Virus record (IMG/VR): IMGVR_UViG_3300031851_000113
Location: 1 to 30,388 of that record
Strand: one strand, 5' to 3'
Length of the DNA: 30,388 nucleotides
Source of the DNA: a virus
In this document: piece after piece, positions 8,376 to 23,886 of the stretch
Position numbering within the stretch: the stretch's first letter is position 1
Layout of the letters: each line of letters begins with the position of its first letter
The notes under the pieces: model-generated
The model's input: the letters and a program-made list of their open reading frames with translations, nothing else
The model's database searches: none
What the model was told of the DNA's origin: nothing
Made by a program: the position numbers and the translations under genes

Positions 8376-8380
8376 GCTCT

Positions 8381-8387
8381 CTAAATA
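8381..8387 (+). promoter_or_regulatory. late-promoter-like box upstream of gp26
   Basis: CTAAATA, five bases after the gp54 stop and 21 bases before the gp26 ATG, in a gap of only 33 bases. Same motif as at 17369 and 24119. Confidence 0.55.
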
Positions 8388-8408: not shown

Positions 8409-9137
8409 ATGCCATTACCTAAGATTACTGCACCAACTTATCAATTAAAGTTACCTTCTACTGGACAAACAATTAAATACAGACCCTTTTTAGTTAAAGA
8501 AGAAAAAGTTTTGATTCTTGCTCTTGAGAGTCAAAACGTACAACAGATTACCATAGCAATTAAACAGGTATTGTCTGAGTGCATCATAACTAAAGGAGTA
8601 AAAGTAGAAGATCTTCCTTCTTTTGACATTGAATATGTTTTCTTAAATGTTCGTGCAAAGTCTGTTGGTGAAGCAATCGATCTAATTGTTACCTGTCAGG
8701 ATGACGGAGAGACTGAAGTATCTGTAAAAATCTTTGTCGATCAGGTAAATGTAGAATTTGCAGAGGATCATTCTCCTGAAATTAAATTAGATGATTCTGT
8801 AAGTTTGAAGATGAAGTATCCTTCATTGGATCAATTTATCCAAAATAATTTTGATTTCCAAGATCAGGAGTCGATGAGTACGATCGAAAAATCATTTGAA
8901 ATCATTGCAGATTGTATTGATACTGTGTTCACTGCAGAAGAAGCTTGGTCTTCATCTGATTGTACTAAAAAAGAATTGTTGGAGTTTATTGAAGGAATGA
9001 ATTCTTCACAATTTAAGATGGTAGAAAAGTTTTTTGAAACTATGCCAAAATTAACTCATACCTTCACAGTCAAAAATCCAAAAACAAAAAAAGAAAATAA
9101 TGTTACGTTGGAGGGTTTATCGAGTTTTTTCGGCTGA
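8409..9137 (+). CDS. 26: gp26-like baseplate hub protein
   Basis: A 242-aa protein matching the T4 gp26 family (208 aa in T4), needed for hub assembly. The N-terminus (PLPKITAPTYQLKLPSTGQT, then IKYRPFLVKEEKVLILALES) is diagnostic: 'P.....P....LPStg..i.yRPFlvKEEKiLLiA.es'. The middle contains FDIEYVFLNVRAKSVGEAI. The C-terminal third is helical, with KTKKENNVTLEGLSSFFG at the end. Near its 3' end, T TTT TTC at 9125-9131 is a classic -1 slippery site that would fuse this protein to the next ORF. A CTAAATA box lies upstream. Confidence 0.87.
   Translation: MPLPKITAPTYQLKLPSTGQTIKYRPFLVKEEKVLILALESQNVQQITIAIKQVLSECIITKGVKVEDLPSFDIEYVFLNVRAKSVGEAIDLIVTCQDDGETEVSVKIFVDQVNVEFAEDHSPEIKLDDSVSLKMKYPSLDQFIQNNFDFQDQESMSTIEKSFEIIADCIDTVFTAEEAWSSSDCTKKELLEFIEGMNSSQFKMVEKFFETMPKLTHTFTVKNPKTKKENNVTLEGLSSFFG
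9125..9131 (+). promoter_or_regulatory. candidate -1 ribosomal frameshift site at the gp26 / 60-aa ORF junction
   Basis: In the gp26 frame the bases read T TTT TTC, an X XXY YYZ heptamer, two codons before the TGA at 9135. The downstream ORF is exactly in the -1 frame and open from 9101 through the heptamer to its stop at 9320, so a slip would give a fused protein of about 302 aa. The 60-aa ORF has no ribosome-binding site close to its ATG. I did not find a clear downstream pseudoknot by eye. Confidence 0.45.
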
Positions 9138-11054: not shown

Positions 11055-13013
11055 ATGGCTCCCCGTAATCTATCTCCAAAAGTAAAAAAGAGTGCTGCTA
11101 AGATATTGAGTCTTGCTCGTAAATCGAGAGGATCAATGCAGATGAATCAGATGAACTTTGTTCGTACTTCAAAGTTCATTAAAAAAGAATCTGCAAGAAT
11201 AAGTAAGCCTAAAATTGACAAGAGAAAATTAAAGAAACTCTTAAACACTGATTTTTCCAGTATCGCAGGTAATGCTGGCGGTGGTGGTGGTATCGGTGGA
11301 CTGTTAGGACTGGGTGGATTTGGAGGAGGCGGGGGAGGCCGTGGTGGTCGTCGTGGAGGCAAACCGCCATCGAGAAGAGCCCAACAAAGATACAGAAGAA
11401 GATTTGGAAATAGAGCTGGTAACAGAAGATTTGGTAGATTACCTCAGTTTGGTAGAGGAGCGGGAGGTGTTCGTGGTGGTTTTGGAGTAAGAGGTGGATT
11501 ACTCGGTGCTGCGTTTGCAGGACTTGAATATGGAGGAAGAGTATCTGAAGGACAAACACAGACACAAGCAATAACAGGAACTGCTGCATCTACTGCTGGT
11601 GGTATTGCTGGTGCATACGCAGGTGGTAAAGCAGGTGCATTGGCAGGTGGTGCTATTGGTGCTTTCTTTGGTGGAGTTGGTGCAGTACCAGGTGCTGCTA
11701 TTGGTGGAGTCCTTGGTTCACTAATTGGGGGTTTTGGTGGATCTATGTTGGCTGGTGGTGCGGCAGATAAAGTTACTGGTGCAGATAAACTTATTGGTAA
11801 AGATGGTAAAAAAGAACAAGAAGAATTAAAAGAGAAAACAAAAATTGATCCACTCGAAGTAACCTTAGATAAATTCGATAGTGTAGTGGAGAGATTTTCA
11901 AAAGCAATTCTGAGTCTTAATCTTGCTGGTGAAGAAGAAGAAAAATCTGACGAAGAAATAGCTGTTGAGAGATATGGCGAAGACGTAGTTGAGGCTTTTA
12001 AAAGGACACAAGATACAGCAAGAAGAAACGAAGAAAAAGCAAGAAAAAAAGAAGAAGAGAAACAAAAAGCGATAACCGATATTAAAAAAGGTCCTTTTGG
12101 GGACATACTTGCTGAAACAATGTTTCCTGGGGAAAAGGAAGATGCTACTGCAAAAACACTCAATGCCCTAGGAGTTCCGCAAGAATATCAGGGTATAACT
12201 GCAATGATGATAGAATCATTAGTAGGTGGTATTGCAATGAGTAGAGGAAGAGGAGTTCCTGCTCGTCCAATTCGTCCACTCACAAAACCAACATCAATAA
12301 AAATCGGAGATCGGGTCGGACCAGATATATTTCCAGTAAAACCACCAGTATCTACTTCATCAGTAAAACCGACAACGCAGGTAACAGGACCACTAAGTAA
12401 ACCAAAACCTAGAGTGTTGTCGGAAGCTATGAATAGTGCTGGAAACACTAGAGCTAAACTCGGGGAATTTAATGATGTTGGTAGAGCTCAGTTAGATGCT
12501 ATGAGAGATATGTTAGGAGGTTCTTTGGGGAAAGGTTATAAAAAACCACAAGTTGAACCTATACAAGAGATGATTAAAAGAGCACTTAAATCTAATATCA
12601 AACCGGAATTTAATCCATCATCATTAACAGAACCTCTAACCAATTTTATGCCAAAAGGTGGCACACAATTGAAATTGGATATACCAAAAATATCAACCGA
12701 CAAAAATCCATTCAAACCTTCTAGGACAATAGAAAAGAACTATGGTGATCAATCTTCTGCTGTTGGTATAGATCAATCTTTGGATTCTGGCATAAAGCAA
12801 TCTTCTGCTGGTATAAATCAATATACAACTTATAACGGACCAAATAATACAATTGCCCTAATACAGGGTGGTGGAAACAGTCTACCGCAACCACCTTCAC
12901 CACCAACGATGATGGCATCTGCTTCACTCCCACCACTACCATCACCATCAGCTCGGGAAATTGCAGACAAGTTCCAAGAAAGAATATTATTAAATACTTT
13001 AGCAGCAACTTAA
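11055..13013 (+). CDS. Gly-rich hub / tape-measure candidate
   Basis: A 652-aa protein of unknown family. Residues 1-65 are strongly basic. Residues 74-150 are extremely Gly/Arg-rich (GGRGGRRGGKPPSRRAQQRY). Residues 165-235 form a Gly/Ala zipper-like hydrophobic segment (AGGIAGAYAGGKAGALAGGA) like those of tape-measure proteins thought to enter the host membrane. Residues 290-350 are a charged coiled coil. The remainder is Pro-rich and disordered. It shares with its neighbour a motif (LDKFDSVVERF here, AKFDSVLQKFD there) and a near-terminal NNTIALIQGGGNSLPQ (SNSVTIIPMGGGDSGPQ there), so the two are probably paralogous. Size and position before gp27 suit a tape measure (T4 gp29 is 590 aa) or hub component. 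Not proven. Confidence 0.6.
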   Translation: MAPRNLSPKVKKSAAKILSLARKSRGSMQMNQMNFVRTSKFIKKESARISKPKIDKRKLKKLLNTDFSSIAGNAGGGGGIGGLLGLGGFGGGGGGRGGRRGGKPPSRRAQQRYRRRFGNRAGNRRFGRLPQFGRGAGGVRGGFGVRGGLLGAAFAGLEYGGRVSEGQTQTQAITGTAASTAGGIAGAYAGGKAGALAGGAIGAFFGGVGAVPGAAIGGVLGSLIGGFGGSMLAGGAADKVTGADKLIGKDGKKEQEELKEKTKIDPLEVTLDKFDSVVERFSKAILSLNLAGEEEEKSDEEIAVERYGEDVVEAFKRTQDTARRNEEKARKKEEEKQKAITDIKKGPFGDILAETMFPGEKEDATAKTLNALGVPQEYQGITAMMIESLVGGIAMSRGRGVPARPIRPLTKPTSIKIGDRVGPDIFPVKPPVSTSSVKPTTQVTGPLSKPKPRVLSEAMNSAGNTRAKLGEFNDVGRAQLDAMRDMLGGSLGKGYKKPQVEPIQEMIKRALKSNIKPEFNPSSLTEPLTNFMPKGGTQLKLDIPKISTDKNPFKPSRTIEKNYGDQSSAVGIDQSLDSGIKQSSAGINQYTTYNGPNNTIALIQGGGNSLPQPPSPPTMMASASLPPLPSPSAREIADKFQERILLNTLAAT

Positions 13014-13014
13014 A

Positions 13015-14277
13015 ATGTCAGTAGCATTATCAGGACTAGAAGTAATTGGTGCAGAAATCCTTACCCGTAGTGGAAAGAGGTTCGATTTTTCTAGTGGAAT
13101 CAATACCATTGACTATTTTGAAGATATCTTATCTCCATGCTGCACGATGAGAATCAATATACAGATATCTGTTAGGATGGTTAACAGTCTACCCATTCGT
13201 GGTGGAGAGAAGGTAGTTTTAAAATTACAAACAAGTAGTGGTATAGTTGATAGAGACGGGGATAAAGCTTTTTATGTAAAGAAGATAGAAAATTATGCTG
13301 CTAGTGGCACGAAAGAAGTTTTTGATATGTGTCTAGTAAGTAGAGAAGGACTTACTAATGAAACTACTAGATGTGAAAAAAAATATCAAAAACTTACTAT
13401 TGATCAACATGTAAAATCTATTTTGAAAGATGTCTTAATTACAAATAATTATGAAGATAAGAACATAGAAAAAACATCAAATACATATAGTTTTATTGGA
13501 AATCAGAAAAAACCTTTCTATATTCTAAATTGGTTACTACCTAAAAGTATTCCTATTGCTGGAAAGTCTGGTACAGATGGAACAAAAGCTAAGGGTGTTT
13601 CTGGATTTTTCTTTTATGAAAATTCGGAAGGTTTTAATTTTAAGAGTATTGAAAAACTTATAGGTGGAATTGATGAACTTCCTTTTGTAGAATACACTTA
13701 CGGAAATGTTTCTAAAGAAAATAGTATTCGTACAGAATTTAACATTCTAGATTATAAAATGGTAAGAAATATTGATCTTATAAATTCATTGAGAACCGGA
13801 ATGTTTTCAAATGTTACATTCTTTTACGATCCATACGAATATAAGACAGATTTTTATCAATATAACCTAAAAGAAGAAATACTTGATAAACTAGGAGAAC
13901 AAGATGATATTGATGTTCCTGGTGGGTTCGAGGATTCTCCTACAAGGATTCTAGTCAGAACATCAGACAGAGGTATCTTAGATCCCAATGATATTGCTGC
14001 TGACTCTGGTAGAGATAACGCCGACATGGCAAAATCTTTCGCTAGATATAACTTGCTTTTTACTCAGTCAATAAATATGACAGTACCGTGTAATATAAAC
14101 TTAAAAGTTGGTGATGTTATTTCTGCCAAATTTCCAAAAGTTTCTGACTCTGATCTTCCAGAAAAAGATAGGGAACAAGGTGGTAAGTATCTTATTAAAA
14201 GTTTAAGACATCACTTTGAAGGAAATGCGAATGCAACTTATTTAAGGTTAATTCGTGATTCATACGGTATTTCATAA
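13015..14277 (+). CDS. 27: gp27 baseplate hub subunit
   Basis: A 420-aa protein (T4 gp27 is 391 aa). A gp27 trimer forms the torus that joins the gp5 spike to the tail tube. Recognisable are the start (GLEVIGAEILTRSGKRFDFS), NTIDYFEDILSPCCTMRINI, the QHVKSILKDVL helix, and the C-terminal NLLFTQSINMTVPCNINLKV, GDVISAKFPK and GGKYLIKSLRHHFEGN, which match the late tube-like domain ('gkYlI.sl.H.f....t.l.LiRDs.g'). It starts one base after the preceding stop. The gene order 27 then 5 corresponds to physical partners in the hub. Confidence 0.88.
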   Translation: MSVALSGLEVIGAEILTRSGKRFDFSSGINTIDYFEDILSPCCTMRINIQISVRMVNSLPIRGGEKVVLKLQTSSGIVDRDGDKAFYVKKIENYAASGTKEVFDMCLVSREGLTNETTRCEKKYQKLTIDQHVKSILKDVLITNNYEDKNIEKTSNTYSFIGNQKKPFYILNWLLPKSIPIAGKSGTDGTKAKGVSGFFFYENSEGFNFKSIEKLIGGIDELPFVEYTYGNVSKENSIRTEFNILDYKMVRNIDLINSLRTGMFSNVTFFYDPYEYKTDFYQYNLKEEILDKLGEQDDIDVPGGFEDSPTRILVRTSDRGILDPNDIAADSGRDNADMAKSFARYNLLFTQSINMTVPCNINLKVGDVISAKFPKVSDSDLPEKDREQGGKYLIKSLRHHFEGNANATYLRLIRDSYGIS

Positions 14278-14287
14278 AGGAAAAACT

Positions 14288-14515
14288 ATGGAAAGTATAG
14301 AACAACACATTAACAAGGACAAAGAAATCCTTGAAGACCCTACAGTCTCTCCACAACAACGTCGTCATATTGAGAGCGAATTGCACGACTTGGAAGATTA
14401 TGCAGAGAATCATAAGAAAGAAATTGAAGCAGGTGATCATCATGATCCCACCCCATTAGAAATATATTGTGACACACATCCAGACGCAGATGAATGTCGG
14501 ATTTACGAGGATTAA
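14288..14515 (+). CDS. small CP12-like protein in the hub operon
   Basis: A 75-aa acidic protein. The last 20 residues (PLEIYCDTHPDADECRIYED) match the C-terminal module of cyanobacterial CP12 ('sLEqYCddnPdAaECRlYDD'), including the two Cys separated by eight residues (C61, C70). CP12 uses this redox-active loop to bind GAPDH and, with PRK, shut down the Calvin cycle. The N-terminal half is helical (SPQQRRHIESELHDLEDYAE) and lacks the CP12 core motif AWD-VEEL and the N-terminal Cys pair. I chose ATG 14288 because AAGG lies 7 bases upstream, just past the gp27 stop; the longer frame from 14255 would overlap gp27. Its place between gp27 and gp5 is odd for a metabolic gene. Confidence 0.68.
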   Translation: MESIEQHINKDKEILEDPTVSPQQRRHIESELHDLEDYAENHKKEIEAGDHHDPTPLEIYCDTHPDADECRIYED

Positions 14516-14519
14516 TTAA

Positions 14520-17372
14520 ATGATCGACGAGTCTTTTATAAAATCTAATTTTATCGGTAAAGACGGATTCATCTGGTGGATCGGTCAGATAGCTCCTGCA
14601 GATTCATGGAGAACCGGTAAGTCTAGAGTCGATACTCCTAAAGATGAAGGTTGGGCTTATAGATGTAAGGTAAGAATTATTGGTTATCATAGTTTCGATG
14701 ACCAAGTATTGCCCAACGAGGATTTACCTTGGGCACATATCCTAACTAGTGCCGATTCTGGTGCTCCTGGCCAGGGTGGTTTTGGTAAGACACATGGACT
14801 TGTCGGAGGAGAATCGGTTTTAGGATTTTTCTTAGACGGAGAAGAAGGACAACAACCAGTGGTTGTATCTACTTTTTATAGAACAAAAGCAGTACAAAAC
14901 CTAAAAGTTCCCACTCCATTTAAAGCTTTCAGTGCGATGACTGGGACGTTGACCCAGACTCCAACTAGAAAAAAACCTCCTAGTGAAAGTACATCAAAAG
15001 AAATTGAGAAAAAGAGCGTAGAAACTGGTCCTGCGTTTACTTTCAAGGATAATAATGCTAACCAAGCTTGGTGGAATTCTCCTACTGGATCTCTTGGTTT
15101 AGAACTAGATTCAAAAGCCTATCTTGGTACTGGTGGAGGTTCCGAATACGTTAGTAATCCGTTGTTAAGTGATGAGTTATTCGGAACTCCAGATCTCGCT
15201 GAAATGGGATTTAATAAAGCATTTTTTGATGCAGGTCCAGTAACAACATCAAATGGCTGTTTAACTGATATTCTTGCACAAATTCAATCGGGTCTTAATA
15301 GTTTACTAGGATTTATCAACGGTTTAGAAAAAACTGCTTTAGGGTATATCGATCCAGTAAGAAATTTAATTGTAGATATAAGTGGTAGTATTCAATCAGT
15401 TACTCGGTTGACAATGGGTCTAGTTAGATTCGTTGTTAACGGAATTAGAGAAAATATTGTTAAATTAGTCGGATGTCTATTTGAAGTATTTGCAATCACC
15501 ATACCTCTACCTCAGTGGATGCAACTATCTGAGGCAGCAAAACAGATTTTAGATCTCATCTTCTGTTTGTTTGAAAAACTTTTTGGTCCCCTTGAAGAGT
15601 TTATTCAAGGTTTAATCAATGAAATGATCGGAGATTCTTTCAATGCTGCGTCTTGCGCTGTTGAAGAGTTTCTTGCTGCAACCATCGGTAAAGTCTCAGA
15701 ACTGATGGAAGACGTACTAGGCGATCTCATGAGTGGTCTAGATTGGTTAGTTGATGGTATAGGAGATATTTCGGGATACATCCGTCAGGGTGTTGGTATG
15801 ATCCAACAACTACTCAGTTTCCTTAACTGCGATGGTTTATTATGCAATAAACCTGGTACATGGGATCCATTTGGTAATATAGAATTCCCGGATACTGATG
15901 ATTGGAATCAAACTCTTGCAAATATTGATATACTCTTTGGATATGGGGATGAGATAAACGATGTTGCTGGATTATTATCATTATTTGGAGGGGATACTCC
16001 ATTTACTGATTGTAGGGACAAAAATATTAATCCACCAGATCAAGGTGCGGCTCCCAGACTTCCACCCGGAACTAAGTTTTATAAGTGTATCCCACCAGAA
16101 ATTGTAATCTATGGTGATGGTGTAGGAGCTGAAGCTGTACCAGTCATCGATCCTGAATCAGGAAAAGTTCTTACAGCTGTTGTAACTAAACCGGGATCAG
16201 GTTACAAACAACCACCAAAAGTAAAGATTGTTGATAAAACAAATTATGGAAATGGTGCAACCGCAAAAACTAGAATTACCGGCGGATCTGTAAGTGACAT
16301 TTATATTACTGATCCTGGTTCTGGATATTGCCCAACAAATCTATCCATAACATTACCAAAACCACCCAGAGATCCAGAACTACCACCAGAATGTGGTAAT
16401 AGTACAGATTGTCCGCCAGGATTTGTTTGTGTTGATGGATATTGTGTTCCTGGATGTAATGACACTAGGGATTGTCCGCCTGGATTTAGTTGTGTTGATG
16501 GTGCGTGTATTCAAACATGTTCTATAGATGCAGATTGTCCACCAGGATATGTTTGTGTTGATGGTCAATGTGTGAGAGAAGATACACCTCCTGATGGCAT
16601 ATTCATTGATCTTCCTGAAATTATTGGTATAACAACGATTCCAATTGGCATTGTTACAGATATTGTTATCACTCGTCCCGGTACTGGATATACTGATGGC
16701 GATACAATACAAATAGGAGATGGTTGTGAATATACCCCAATCTTAACTGAAAATGGTTCAATTATTGGTATCGAAAGTTTATATCCGTGTGATCAGGAAT
16801 TCTTTACAAATCCACCCATTACAATCATTACTAGTACTGGTTCGGGTGCAGAGGCATTCCCTGTTGTAGAATATAAACCACAATATACAGTGGACAATCA
16901 AGATATTGTTGGTCTCACAAGTATTAGAACTGTTATTAATTGTGTAGGCATTAGAGATTTAGTCTTTGTTGGATGGGTCAATGGATCTCCATATTATGGT
17001 CCATACCATGAACATGAAAACAAGAGAATGGTTGGACCAGTACATACTGATAGACCACATCCAGTCATCTATGATACTAAAGAAAGAAGTATCTCTGTCG
17101 CTAATGTGTTTGCACCAACTACGAGTACAACTATAAGTGCTTCGGATAATTTAACCCCACTATCTCCACAAACTTCTACACAAACTTCCACCACTACACA
17201 AACTACCACACAAACACAGGTCTCTACACCTACACAAACTACCACACAAACACAGGTCTCTGCACCTACACCGACGCCTACACCAGATCCAACCCCACCA
17301 CCATCCAGTCCTCCCCCATCATCACCACCTTCAGGAGGGGGTGGCTCTGGAGGCGGTGGATATGGTTACTAA
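14520..17372 (+). CDS. 5: gp5-like baseplate hub spike protein without lysozyme domain
   Basis: A 950-aa protein (T4 gp5 is 575 aa). Residues 1-125 are the gp5 N-terminal OB-fold (DGFIWWIGQIAPADSW; WAYRCKVRIIGYHS; DLPWAHILTSADSGAP; GESVLGFFLDGEEGQQPVVV). No lysozyme motif follows. Instead there is a linker, a long amphipathic helical region (about 245-440), GxGY beta repeats (558-570, 600-612, 721-733), three Cys-rich repeats (625-684), a GPYHEHENKRMVGPVHT His-rich segment (827-843), a Thr/Gln/Pro-rich tail (880-930) and a Gly-rich end. The T4 beta-helix is in a separate gene downstream. It starts 4 bases after the CP12-like stop. The gp5 assignment is firm for the OB-fold; the functions of the other domains are unknown. 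Confidence 0.88.
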   Translation: MIDESFIKSNFIGKDGFIWWIGQIAPADSWRTGKSRVDTPKDEGWAYRCKVRIIGYHSFDDQVLPNEDLPWAHILTSADSGAPGQGGFGKTHGLVGGESVLGFFLDGEEGQQPVVVSTFYRTKAVQNLKVPTPFKAFSAMTGTLTQTPTRKKPPSESTSKEIEKKSVETGPAFTFKDNNANQAWWNSPTGSLGLELDSKAYLGTGGGSEYVSNPLLSDELFGTPDLAEMGFNKAFFDAGPVTTSNGCLTDILAQIQSGLNSLLGFINGLEKTALGYIDPVRNLIVDISGSIQSVTRLTMGLVRFVVNGIRENIVKLVGCLFEVFAITIPLPQWMQLSEAAKQILDLIFCLFEKLFGPLEEFIQGLINEMIGDSFNAASCAVEEFLAATIGKVSELMEDVLGDLMSGLDWLVDGIGDISGYIRQGVGMIQQLLSFLNCDGLLCNKPGTWDPFGNIEFPDTDDWNQTLANIDILFGYGDEINDVAGLLSLFGGDTPFTDCRDKNINPPDQGAAPRLPPGTKFYKCIPPEIVIYGDGVGAEAVPVIDPESGKVLTAVVTKPGSGYKQPPKVKIVDKTNYGNGATAKTRITGGSVSDIYITDPGSGYCPTNLSITLPKPPRDPELPPECGNSTDCPPGFVCVDGYCVPGCNDTRDCPPGFSCVDGACIQTCSIDADCPPGYVCVDGQCVREDTPPDGIFIDLPEIIGITTIPIGIVTDIVITRPGTGYTDGDTIQIGDGCEYTPILTENGSIIGIESLYPCDQEFFTNPPITIITSTGSGAEAFPVVEYKPQYTVDNQDIVGLTSIRTVINCVGIRDLVFVGWVNGSPYYGPYHEHENKRMVGPVHTDRPHPVIYDTKERSISVANVFAPTTSTTISASDNLTPLSPQTSTQTSTTTQTTTQTQVSTPTQTTTQTQVSAPTPTPTPDPTPPPSSPPPSSPPSGGGGSGGGGYGY
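16392..16577 (+). repeat. three tandem Cys-rich repeats inside gp5
   Basis: Protein repeats of 20-21 residues: CGNSTDCPPGFVCVDGYC, CNDTRDCPPGFSCVDGAC and CSIDADCPPGYVCVDGQC (residues 625-684). Consensus C-x5-CPPG(F/Y)xCVDGxC-x3. Twelve or more Cys in about 60 residues suggests disulphide-bonded small knots, rare in phage tail proteins. Confidence 0.9.
17196..17267 (+). repeat. two tandem 36-base repeats in the gp5 Thr/Gln tail
   Basis: A 36-base unit starting ACACAAACTACCACACAAAC occurs twice head to tail (17196 and 17232) with almost no change, encoding TQTTTQTQVS(T/A)PT twice. The near-identity at DNA level points to recent duplication or slippage. Confidence 0.8.
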
Positions 17373-20690: not shown

Positions 20691-20848
20691 AGTACATCGT
20701 TCAGTACGATAGACCTAAAAAGAAAGGCACTGCACTTCAACGTGCAACTTTCTTTGATATTCGTGACGCAATGATGTGGGAAAGACACATCAGGAACGAA
20801 ACCAACTGTAAAAACGTAGAACTAGTCCCCATTTTCACAGATGTTTGA
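20687..20848 (+). CDS. small conserved protein (53 aa)
   Basis: Encodes MKYIVQYDRPKKKGTALQRA followed by TFFDIRDAMMWERHIRNETN and ends NVELVPIFTDV: basic, beta-alpha-beta in appearance. ATGA overlap with the gene before and an 8-base overlap with the aminotransferase after it indicate a tightly coupled operon. Function unknown; its strand-helix-strand pattern resembles that of the 58-aa protein at 23900. Confidence 0.62.
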   Translation: MKYIVQYDRPKKKGTALQRATFFDIRDAMMWERHIRNETNCKNVELVPIFTDV

Positions 20849-21785
20849 AAGAGTTCCCTGGTACAAGTCTCAACCCCAAAATAACAAGATCAATCTATCT
20901 AATAACATTTGTTATGATCCGAAACACTCCCTAAAAGTGAGTGAACTGATTCGAGAAAATGGTAATGGTTTTAGTCAATACGCCAACGAATCAAAAATTT
21001 ATGATTACTTAAGTGAATTTTATGGGGTAGAAAAACAAAAGATTGCTATCGGTATGGGTCTGGGTGAACTAATTCCTCGGATCTTCAATATTTTTAGAAA
21101 CAAAAAGTTTTCTATTGTCACACCTACCTGGATGATGGCAACAGGATTCTGTGAAGTTAATTGCATCGAATACGTCGAAGGTATTGATCTCAGTGCAGAC
21201 ATCCTGTACATTGCAAATCCTAATGGTCAGGATGGGAAAATCATATATCCAGATATGATAGATTCTCTATGTGATGCTTTTGAATATGTCATCATTGATG
21301 AAGCCTATGCAGACTTTTGCGTTCCCACATGTTCAGCTCTCGATCTGGCTGTCACTAGAAACAACGTTATCGTATGCAAAACTTTTAGCAAGTCTCTTGC
21401 TCTACCTGGAATTCGTTTCGGTTATTGTTTTGGTGGTAATGATGTTATCTGGAGACTTCAACAACTACGCCCCTCGGGAGTGGTAAATAGTATCGTAGAA
21501 AAGACAGGTCTAGAACTTCTAGGTCTTATTGAAGATCATGTAGAACGTATGGTCGAAACTAGAAACTATATTGAATCTAAGTATGATTGTTCTCCTTCAA
21601 ATGCAAACTTTGTACTATTGAAGAATAAAGAATCTTTCCTAGATGGATTTCAATATAGAATAATCAACGGACTTCATCGTATGTCTTTAATGGATCTAGA
21701 CACATTCAAATGTTATGAATCGATATCAGACGTTCACCAAAGTAGAGAACGCAAATCTAATCAATTCAACACTTCGCAGTATTGA
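20841..21785 (+). CDS. HisC-like PLP-dependent aminotransferase (class I/II)
   Basis: A 314-aa protein, somewhat short for histidinol-phosphate aminotransferase or CobD-like enzymes (about 350 aa). Visible fold-type I landmarks are GMGLGELIPRIF (PLP phosphate loop, about 71-82), IANPNGQDG (124-132, with Asn126), VIIDEAYADF (150-159, Asp153 binding the pyridine N), KTFSKSLALPGIRFGY (180-195) with Lys184 as the Schiff-base lysine and Arg192, and the C-terminal RMSLMDLDTF where the substrate-binding region should lie. The last 24 or so residues look unlike the family and overlap the radical SAM gene in another frame. Substrate unknown. Its pairing with the radical SAM gene suggests a shared pathway acting on an amino acid or amino sugar. 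Confidence 0.82.
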   Translation: MFERVPWYKSQPQNNKINLSNNICYDPKHSLKVSELIRENGNGFSQYANESKIYDYLSEFYGVEKQKIAIGMGLGELIPRIFNIFRNKKFSIVTPTWMMATGFCEVNCIEYVEGIDLSADILYIANPNGQDGKIIYPDMIDSLCDAFEYVIIDEAYADFCVPTCSALDLAVTRNNVIVCKTFSKSLALPGIRFGYCFGGNDVIWRLQQLRPSGVVNSIVEKTGLELLGLIEDHVERMVETRNYIESKYDCSPSNANFVLLKNKESFLDGFQYRIINGLHRMSLMDLDTFKCYESISDVHQSRERKSNQFNTSQY

Positions 21786-22455
21786 ATTATGTATCACAAC
21801 TGCATGTAATCGTGCGTGTTCGTTTTGTCCTCATGCATGGGGATTCAAAACTGAAGATACTAGAGAAAAGTTTGTAAGTCTAGAAACTGTAGACAGATTC
21901 ATAGAATTCGCCTCTGTATATAATAACCAGATTACTTTATGTGGTATGGGTGAACCCACAATGCACCCATATATTAAACAAATTTTAGATAAATTTCAAA
22001 AAGTTGATAACAAAACAATCCTAGTTACTAATGGATATAAACTCCATGAAGTTGTAGACCATCTTGGACATATTCGTCCTAGAGTAAGTCTATATGAACC
22101 AATGGATCTTCCAAATATTGATATGGATGTTATCAATTACTATGAAGAGGGTGAGAACGTGAACTTCAATCAAAGAAGTTATGCTAAGGGAATTAAAAAA
22201 CCCTGTTATCTACCATCATATAAAATGGTTGTAGATACTAGTGGTGGTATTTTACCTTGCGATAATAACTGGCAAGAGGTCGAATACCTTGCTAATATCT
22301 TTGATTATGATCTAGAAACTGTATGGTTGGATAAGTTCAACACATTCAGAACTAACTGTTCTGAAGATCGATCTCTTAATAAGTATTGCCGTAACTGTGA
22401 TGCAGGTGGTATATTATATGGGTCAGAAGAAATGCAACTCCTTACTAATCAATGA
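21715..22455 (+). CDS. radical SAM protein with SPASM/twitch-like C-terminal cysteines
   Basis: A 246-aa protein. The SAM-binding 4Fe-4S motif is CNRACSFC (C31, C35, C38), followed by the GMGEPTMHP segment (77-85, the 'GGE' type SAM-binding strand) and VTNGYKL (104-110). The C-terminal part has C164, C182, C215, C225 and C228 (ILPCDNN...NKYCRNCDAGG), suggesting an auxiliary Fe-S cluster as in SPASM or twitch enzymes that modify peptides or act in cofactor and sugar pathways. The start at 21715 overlaps the aminotransferase by 71 bases; there is no later ATG before the Cys motif. Reaction unknown. It overlaps the next small ORF as ATGA. Confidence 0.85.
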   Translation: MNRYQTFTKVENANLINSTLRSIELCITTACNRACSFCPHAWGFKTEDTREKFVSLETVDRFIEFASVYNNQITLCGMGEPTMHPYIKQILDKFQKVDNKTILVTNGYKLHEVVDHLGHIRPRVSLYEPMDLPNIDMDVINYYEEGENVNFNQRSYAKGIKKPCYLPSYKMVVDTSGGILPCDNNWQEVEYLANIFDYDLETVWLDKFNTFRTNCSEDRSLNKYCRNCDAGGILYGSEEMQLLTNQ

Positions 22456-22776: not shown

Positions 22777-22792
22777 AAAAAAAGTTTTGATT

Positions 22793-23260
22793 ATGATTGA
22801 AGAATTTTGCAGTTATTTTGAAGGATACTTCAATAATCAAATGCAGGCTTTCAACTACCCAAGAGAGTTTGCAATGATTGAACTTAATCATCGTCGTATC
22901 GAAGGAACTAACAGATTTACTGTTACTCAAGGATATGTAATGGATGGAGATCCCTACAGGTCTGTAGAGATTGAAGTTATTGATGATTCAAAAAATAATC
23001 AAGTAATTCTAAAAACTTATAAAGACGATGAACACATTCCTGGATGTGACTGTGTTTTCCAAAAAGTTGATAATGAGTTTCATGGAGATATTACAGGTAA
23101 AGAGTGTTTTGTTCAACGTGGTATTAAAAATACATACATGCAGTCTTCCGCTAAACTAGGTGACGGATACTATCATGTAATTGATCAAGGTTTTGATCCT
23201 GACAATGATGGACAACTTTGGGGATCACGTCACGGTCACTTTGAATTTGATAAAAAATAA
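22793..23260 (+). CDS. cpeT: CpeT-like phycobiliprotein lyase (auxiliary metabolic gene)
   Basis: A 155-aa protein of the CpcT/CpeT family, which attaches or hands over phycoerythrobilin/phycocyanobilin to phycobiliprotein cysteines. Family features visible are an N-terminal helix with FEGYFNNQMQAFNYPREFAM, a central beta-barrel with DGDPYRSVEIEVIDD, GCDCVFQKVDNEFHGDITGK, then ECFVQRGIKNTYMQSSAKLG and the closing DQGFDPDNDGQLWGS + HGHFEF, the CpeT hallmark ('..DrG.dp.t.e.vWGs..GpfeF'). I chose ATG 22793; the open frame also has TTG at 22787. cpeT is a known cyanophage-borne gene and suggests a host with phycobilisomes or phycoerythrin. Confidence 0.85.
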   Translation: MIEEFCSYFEGYFNNQMQAFNYPREFAMIELNHRRIEGTNRFTVTQGYVMDGDPYRSVEIEVIDDSKNNQVILKTYKDDEHIPGCDCVFQKVDNEFHGDITGKECFVQRGIKNTYMQSSAKLGDGYYHVIDQGFDPDNDGQLWGSRHGHFEFDKK

Positions 23261-23265
23261 TTGTT

Positions 23266-23886
23266 GTGAAAATACAATATTTCAATGATCTAGATCGATT
23301 TCCTTATATTATTATAGATGAGTTCTATAACGAATCGGAGATTGAAGAACTTTGGGAAGAATTGGACTACATGTGCAATTCTAGAAGACTTATTTTGGCC
23401 TCAAAGGATAGAGGTGCGGCGCATGATAATGGTAAATTATTAAAGTTTAATCATTGCCAATATCTAGACTCAATGTATACGAATAGGTCACAATCAAATA
23501 TTTTAGATGTAACTACAAAGTTATTCATGGAGGAAAAAAGAATTCTTGAAGATCATCCTCATTGGTACTTTAAGGATATGTCGAGAATTAACCTAGACTT
23601 CACTCAGGTTAGTTATTACGAACATAAGGATGAATATCAAAGTCATAGAGATCGTGCAATTTTTACTTCTCTGACTTGGTTCTACAAAAAACCAAAGAAA
23701 TATTCTGGTGGTGATTTTTGGTTTGAAGATTTCAACTTTGGACTAGAATGCTTAAATAATAGGTCAGTAATTTTTCCATCAATTATAAGACATGCGGTAA
23801 GACCCATTAAAATGGAGGAAAAGTTTATGGGACAGAAATGTGGAAGGTTCTGTATTTCTCAATTTTTGTGTACTAAATTCCAGTAA
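23266..23886 (+). CDS. 2-oxoglutarate/Fe(II)-dependent oxygenase
   Basis: A 206-aa single-domain dioxygenase of the type frequent in marine T4-like phages. The double-stranded beta-helix core runs from about residue 110. The iron ligands are likely His127 and Asp129 (YQSHRDRAIFTSLTWFY) and His176 (FPSIIRHAVRPI), and the 2OG-binding Arg is R194 (CGRFCISQF). KKYSGGDFWFED (residues 144-155) is the typical 'y.GGel.f.....' strand. The start is GTG at 23266, five bases after the cpeT stop, without a strong ribosome site. The substrate (protein residue, nucleobase or small molecule) cannot be read from sequence. Confidence 0.85.
   Translation: MKIQYFNDLDRFPYIIIDEFYNESEIEELWEELDYMCNSRRLILASKDRGAAHDNGKLLKFNHCQYLDSMYTNRSQSNILDVTTKLFMEEKRILEDHPHWYFKDMSRINLDFTQVSYYEHKDEYQSHRDRAIFTSLTWFYKKPKKYSGGDFWFEDFNFGLECLNNRSVIFPSIIRHAVRPIKMEEKFMGQKCGRFCISQFLCTKFQ

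What the first reader, a model, noticed from the sequence alone, without database searches (positions are those of the whole stretch)
14288..14515. CP12-type redox tail on a small protein encoded between gp27 and gp5
The last 20 residues match the GAPDH-binding C-terminal module of CP12, including both Cys and the ECR-Y-E/D-D ending, but the AWD-VEEL core is missing. Known phage cp12 genes belong to metabolic gene sets. Here it lies inside the baseplate hub operon, between two physically interacting hub proteins. It may be a minimal Calvin-cycle inhibitor expressed late, a virion-delivered inhibitor injected with the hub, or a co-opted hub chaperone.
Basis: partly seen in the sequence, partly recalled or inferred. 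Interest (0 to 1): 0.7.

Follow-up and report, generated by a model that had tools for sequence, protein, structure and literature searches.

The report
Cyanophage CP12 Calvin-cycle inhibitor gene
This small viral gene is the well-known cyanophage copy of CP12, a protein that is thought to shut down carbon fixation in the infected cyanobacterium; it sits at a genome position already reported for such genes, so the find is real but mostly ordinary.

Summary
The ORF at 14288-14515 encodes a genuine CP12 (Pfam PF02672, E 3.8e-12, 47.2 bits against a cut-off of 22.7). It is homologous over its whole length, not only the last 20 residues, to the 72-aa CP12 of marine picocyanobacteria. All 32 host CP12s read here also lack AWD_VEEL, so nothing was trimmed away. 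Relatives occur in about 370 phage records, all cyanophages or marine viruses, many already annotated as CP12. Sullivan et al. 2010 reported cp12 'near gp5'. The closest listed isolates, S-SCSM1 (84%) and S-CAM9, carry it in the same hub context. Hub-chaperone and virion-delivery readings fail or weaken: S-PM2, a Stenotrophomonas phage and a Vibrio phage keep the orthologous tail protein without cp12; the gene has moved between hub and other sites several times; S-SCSM1's record marks neighbouring proteins, but not CP12, as virion proteins. One small finding remains: elsewhere cp12 usually has its own T4-late-like promoter about 30 nt upstream (20/23 loci), but tight hub loci like this window mostly lack it (3/35 have it), so here it is probably transcribed with the late hub operon. 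Best explanation: a phage auxiliary metabolic gene that inhibits host GAPDH.

The parts
14288..14515 (+). [quoted passage not shown]
   Evidence: PF02672 E 3.8e-12; phrog_627 E 6.9e-41; 374 phage records with a match
14435..14512 (+). codons 50-75, GAPDH-binding C-terminal module DHHDPTPLEIYCDTHPDADECRIYED with C61-P65-C70 and the acidic penultimate residue E74
   Evidence: acid at position 74 in 92/92 phage and 32/32 host proteins
14288..14434 (+). codons 1-49, N-terminal helical hairpin (predicted helices at residues 4-15 and 22-41), shared with marine host CP12
   Evidence: full-length host alignment; AlphaFold2 mean pLDDT 89.5
14520..17372 (+). downstream neighbour: gp5-like baseplate hub / spike protein
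   Evidence: phrog_1922 E 4.8e-98
8380..8387 (+). TCTAAATA, T4-late-like promoter motif 29 nt before the gp26 start; putative promoter of the hub operon that runs into cp12
   Evidence: consensus match only

Best explanation
It is a cyanophage auxiliary metabolic gene, cp12. The protein folds as an N-terminal helical hairpin plus a C-terminal loop closed by a C61-C70 disulfide when oxidised. Its acidic C-terminus enters the NADP site of host Calvin-cycle GAPDH (Gap2) and inhibits it, so carbon flow turns from CO2 fixation to the pentose phosphate pathway and nucleotide synthesis. Shown here: family membership, conserved module, purifying selection, restriction to cyanophages, mobility of the gene between sites. 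Inferred: disulfide formation, GAPDH binding and inhibition (from characterised CP12s). Also inferred: in this phage it is co-transcribed late with the hub operon, because its usual own promoter is absent.
For: PF02672 hit over the full length. Full-length alignment with 32 host CP12s, best 52.9% identity, with C61, P65, E69, C70 invariant and position 74 always acidic. Purifying selection, median dN/dS 0.12. The tail was found only in cyanophages and unassigned marine virus records. The AlphaFold model's top five PDB hits are full-length CP12 chains from GAPDH complexes, at weak E 0.08-0.24. Literature: phage cp12 is highly expressed in light infection (PMC5082946). [quoted passage not shown] The C-terminal Cys pair is the one needed for GapDH2 binding (PMC9623430). 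The penultimate acid contacts a GAPDH arginine in Chlamydomonas (PMC4436894).
Against: No binding, inhibition or expression data exist for this particular protein. Without an N-terminal Cys pair and AWD_VEEL it may not recruit PRK. Its position in a late operon argues against an early switch in this lineage; P-HM2 cp12 is a middle gene.
Confidence: 0.93

Rival explanations
1. The CP12 is packaged with the hub and injected with the virion, acting on GAPDH at the very start of infection.
For: It is encoded between two hub genes with 10-nt and 4-nt gaps. NMNAT-like, non-structural proteins have been detected in cyanophage virions (PMC9602691).
Against: In the closest listed isolate, S-SCSM1, with the same hub context, the record marks genes 213, 214 and 217 '(virion protein)' but not CP12, gene 216; the hub protein 215 is also unmarked, so this is moderate evidence. 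S-CREM2's six non-structural virion proteins do not include CP12, but its cp12 is divergent. The gene also lives far from the hub.
Confidence: 0.03
2. A co-opted hub assembly chaperone that kept a CP12-like tail by descent.
For: The position next to the hub proteins is retained in 61 of 80 close relatives.
Against: The same tail protein exists without cp12 in S-PM2 (29-nt gap to gp5), Mendera (overlapping gp5) and Vibrio K469. Hub and other-site copies interleave on the tree, with 7-9 changes of site. L004 is 88% identical and not at the hub. The GAPDH module's Cys pair and proline are conserved in all 92 phage copies.
Confidence: 0.01
3. An ordinary CP12 expressed early or middle from a promoter inside the upstream gene, so the late-operon part of the best explanation is wrong.
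For: Some tight-hub relatives have sigma70-like matches inside the upstream gene, for example L035 11/12 and L044 10/12. P-HM2 cp12 is a middle gene.
Against: The window's best sigma70-like match within 150 nt is only 7/12, no better than shuffles.
Confidence: 0.3

Closest known systems
CP12 of Synechococcus phage S-SCSM1 (QFG06480.1) and S-CAM9 (AOV60389.1)
   Same: 84% and 82.7% identity; same hub context, with the hub or tail gene upstream and gp5 downstream; already annotated as carbon metabolic regulator CP12
   Different: Minor substitutions only; S-CAM9 has a wider gap to gp5 (56 nt) and a TTAAATA motif at -26
T4-GC 337 cp12 of T4-like cyanophages (Sullivan 2010, PMC3037559), e.g. S-SSM5 and P-HM1
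   Same: Same family, 228-nt gene in many genomes, cyanophage-only; 'near gp5' is one of its published positions
   Different: In S-SSM5 it has its own sigma70-like and late-like promoters and is followed by 2OG oxygenase and cpeT; in P-HM1 it sits next to talC
Marine picocyanobacterial CP12 (host, 72 aa)
   Same: Full-length homology, no AWD_VEEL, no N-terminal Cys pair, same C-terminal module
   Different: Host proteins lack the EIEAG spacer found in the phage protein, except in 2 of 151 host genomes; hosts and phages form separate clades
Canonical CP12 (S. elongatus type, plants)
   Same: C-terminal GAPDH-binding module
   Different: Canonical CP12 has AWD_VEEL and an N-terminal, PRK-docking Cys pair (PMC9406205); this one has neither

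Membership tests
CP12 (PF02672) | Profile score above the curated cut-off over most of the model | tested here: met
   47.2 bits against 22.7, profile 3-70 of 70; 9 of 9 members of alignment A1 match at E 0.01 or better
CP12 (PF02672) | C-terminal Cys pair CxxxPxxxxC | tested here: met
   C61-P65-C70, invariant in 92 phage and 32 host proteins
CP12 (PF02672) | Acidic C-terminal end (penultimate Glu/Asp) that contacts the GAPDH NADP site | tested here: met
   E74-D75; Glu or Asp at position 74 in all 124 sequences; contact reported for Chlamydomonas CP12 (PMC4436894)
CP12 (PF02672) | Central AWD_VEEL core (canonical CP12 only) | tested here: not met
   Absent in the window, and absent in all 32 marine host CP12s read; recognised CP12 variants lack it (PMC3906501)
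CP12 (PF02672) | N-terminal Cys pair (canonical CP12 only; PRK docking) | tested here: not met
   Only C61 and C70 are present; also lacking in marine host CP12s
CP12 (PF02672) | Redox-dependent binding and inhibition of GAPDH | not testable with these tools
   Needs biochemistry; only single-chain folding was available
Virion (hub-carried) protein | Present in purified virions | tested here: inconclusive
   Not marked as a virion protein in S-SCSM1 although 213, 214 and 217 are; no data for this phage

The most novel reading that the evidence does not exclude
In one branch of cyanomyoviruses, including this phage, cp12 has lost the promoter it usually carries and become part of the late hub operon. 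CP12 would then be made only late in infection, as a late Calvin-cycle brake rather than the early or middle switch described for P-HM2.
Probability: 0.45. Interest if true: 0.35.

Novelty: already known. Interest (0 to 1): 0.17.

Why it matters
Phage CP12 is part of how cyanophages are thought to stop CO2 fixation while keeping the light reactions running, which matters for ocean carbon budgets. The gene itself is known. What may be worth testing is the contrast between cp12 copies that carry their own promoter and copies fused into the late hub operon, since it predicts a different timing of the carbon-fixation shutdown in closely related phages.

Tried and rejected
(1) Two Stenotrophomonas phage matches to the whole protein looked like the refuting case; they vanish when either half is searched alone, so they are taken as chance. 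Klebsiella and Mycobacterium matches appear only at E up to 10. (2) A genome-contig search with the single protein found nothing. With an alignment, six of nine loci were cyanophage-like CP12 in records named Euryarchaeota, Rhodopirellula or Nonlabens, probably contamination or mis-binning. (3) A sigma70 promoter scan of the window's 12800-15000 stretch gave no more sites than shuffles. (5) Thompson 2011 and Stanley 2013 are not held, so they are known here only through papers that cite them. (7) A first extraction of host CP12s failed on reverse-strand loci and on a wrong pattern and was corrected. (8) The idea of a phage-specific loss of AWD_VEEL was rejected, because the hosts lack it too.

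Full report
The ORF at 14288-14515 encodes a 75-aa protein ending in PLEIYCDTHPDADECRIYED. Pfam CP12 (PF02672) matches residues 2-74 with E 3.8e-12 and 47.2 bits against a cut-off of 22.7. Sequence searches of the PDB return CP12 chains, including those crystallised with cyanobacterial and Arabidopsis GAPDH. The ORF lies between a phrog_350 tail/hub protein (13015-14277, E 1.1e-98) and a gp5-like hub protein (14520-17372, phrog_1922 E 4.8e-98), with gaps of 10 and 4 nt. The upstream protein has no Pfam match, so 'gp27' is a positional name; S-SCSM1's annotators call its counterpart 'baseplate hub protein'.

The similarity is not limited to the tail. CP12 was found above cut-off in 78 of 81 genomes of the host family reached through Prochlorococcus loci. 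The 32 host CP12 proteins extracted, 72 aa in all but one, align with the window protein from end to end: MKSIDEHIQKDQSEIE...HDPTSLELYCDANPDADECRVYDD against MESIEQHINKDKEILE...HDPTPLEIYCDTHPDADECRIYED, best identity 52.9%. None of the 32 has AWD_VEEL or an N-terminal Cys pair. The AlphaFold model (mean pLDDT 89.5) has helices at 4-15, 22-41, 43-47 and 56-63, and its top five PDB matches are full-length CP12 chains, though with weak E-values of 0.08-0.24.

The gene is widespread and already annotated. tblastn finds it in 374 phage records. The last 30 residues alone match 368 records, all Synechococcus phages, cyanophages, Prochlorococcus phages or unassigned marine viruses. Many are annotated 'CP12' or 'carbon metabolic regulator'. 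The closest listed isolates, S-SCSM1 (84%) and S-CAM9 (82.7%), have it in the same hub context. Sullivan et al. [quoted passage not shown] Lopez-Calcagno et al. 2014 (PMC3906501) describe cyanophage CP12s as similar to the C-terminal region of CP12.

The hub link is positional, not functional, on present evidence. Of the 80 closest IMG/VR relatives, 61 lie at the hub junction and 19 elsewhere. Other sites include a region with psbD-like, RNase H-like, thyX-like and PhoH-like genes (L055) and, in a phage-like contig of a Prochlorococcus single-cell genome, next to psbA and a glutaredoxin (L106); these neighbour names were read from the sequences by eye and not searched. In P-HM1 cp12 precedes talC. 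On a maximum-likelihood tree, hosts form one clade (100/100), while hub and other-site copies interleave and need 7-9 changes of site across bootstrap trees; with only 77 columns many forks are open. L004, not at the hub, is 88% identical to the window protein. Conversely, the orthologous hub exists without cp12: in S-PM2 the tail protein is followed directly by gp5 after 29 nt, in Stenotrophomonas phage Mendera the two overlap, and Vibrio phage K469 shows no gene between the tail protein and the next ORF. A hub chaperone is therefore very unlikely. For virion delivery, S-SCSM1's record marks genes 213, 214 and 217 as virion proteins but not 216, CP12; the paper's list of non-structural virion proteins does not name it. 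A small protein can be missed, and hub protein 215 is unmarked too, so this is moderate evidence.

Selection and mechanism. Pairwise dN/dS among phage copies has a median of 0.12 over the gene, so the protein is kept by selection. Across 92 phage and 32 host sequences, C61, P65, E69 and C70 are invariant and position 74 is always Glu or Asp. In characterised CP12s the oxidised C-terminal loop puts the acidic end into the GAPDH active site (PMC4436894), and in Synechocystis the C-terminal Cys pair, not the N-terminal one, carries most of the physiological effect (PMC9623430). Phage cp12 is among the most highly expressed genes of P-HM2 in light and belongs to its middle cluster (PMC5082946). 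S-RSM4, which has cp12 and other carbon genes, stops host carbon fixation 2 h earlier than S-PM2, which has none (PMC10665884, citing Puxty 2016). GAPDH inhibition by this very protein is inferred, not shown.

One contrast was not described in the papers read. Where cp12 sits away from the hub, or at the hub with a spacer of about 26 nt or more before it, a T4-late-like motif ([ACT]TAAATA) lies 22-45 nt before its ATG in 20 of 23 distinct loci, usually at about -28 to -34; in tightly packed hub loci it is there in only 3 of 35 (Fisher p 1.3e-9; expectation from shuffles about 1.2 in each class). S-SSM5 and QB2 add a strong sigma70-like promoter (TTGACA-17-TAGAAT and TTGACA-17-TATAAT). The window has neither: its best sigma70-like match is 7 of 12, no better than shuffles. 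TCTAAATA does lie 29 nt before the first hub gene (8380, gp26 at 8409), another motif lies at about -25 of the gene at 13015, and the next is associated with the gene after gp5 (-32 of 17401). The simplest inference is that cp12 here rides on late hub transcripts. Caveats: related loci are not independent samples, so the p-value overstates the case; the motif definition was chosen after seeing some of the sequences; motif matches are not proof of promoters; and the classes were defined partly by spacer length, so a short spacer leaves less non-coding room for a promoter and the contrast partly restates the compact layout.

Verdict: a real CP12, a known auxiliary metabolic gene at a known site. 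Interest is low, with a modest testable point about expression timing.

Noticed in passing
window 16380-16600 (inside gp5, 14520-17372): Three tandem Cys-rich repeats (ECGNSTDCPPGFVCVDGYCVPGC...DCPPGFSCVDGAC...DCPPGYVCVDGQC) in the hub/spike protein, matching Pfam DUF7107 just over its cut-off (25.3 against 24.6 bits); unusual-looking for a phage baseplate protein.
   Followed up: no
L104 (G002:C13) and L139 (G007:C1): Two of 151 host-family genomes carry the phage-type EIEAGDHHDP spacer in CP12, otherwise missing from host CP12; a possible phage-host exchange or the donor lineage of the phage gene.
   Followed up: partly
window 20841-22455: An aminotransferase class I/II gene overlapping a radical SAM/SPASM gene, lying between structural genes and cpeT.
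   Followed up: no
window 22787-23886: cpeT-like and 2OG-Fe(II) oxygenase-like genes; in S-SSM5 the cp12, 2OG oxygenase and cpeT genes are contiguous before gp5, here they are split by gp5 and other genes.
   Followed up: partly
L093-L098: Cyanophage-like cp12 on contigs filed under Euryarchaeota and Rhodopirellula MAGs and a Nonlabens isolate; probably mis-binning or contamination.
   Followed up: no
L084 5900-6000, L086 4900-5000: Tandem sigma70-like and T4-late-like promoters directly before cp12 in S-SSM5 and QB2, the same double arrangement reported for S-PM2d psbA in PMC5931967.
   Followed up: yes
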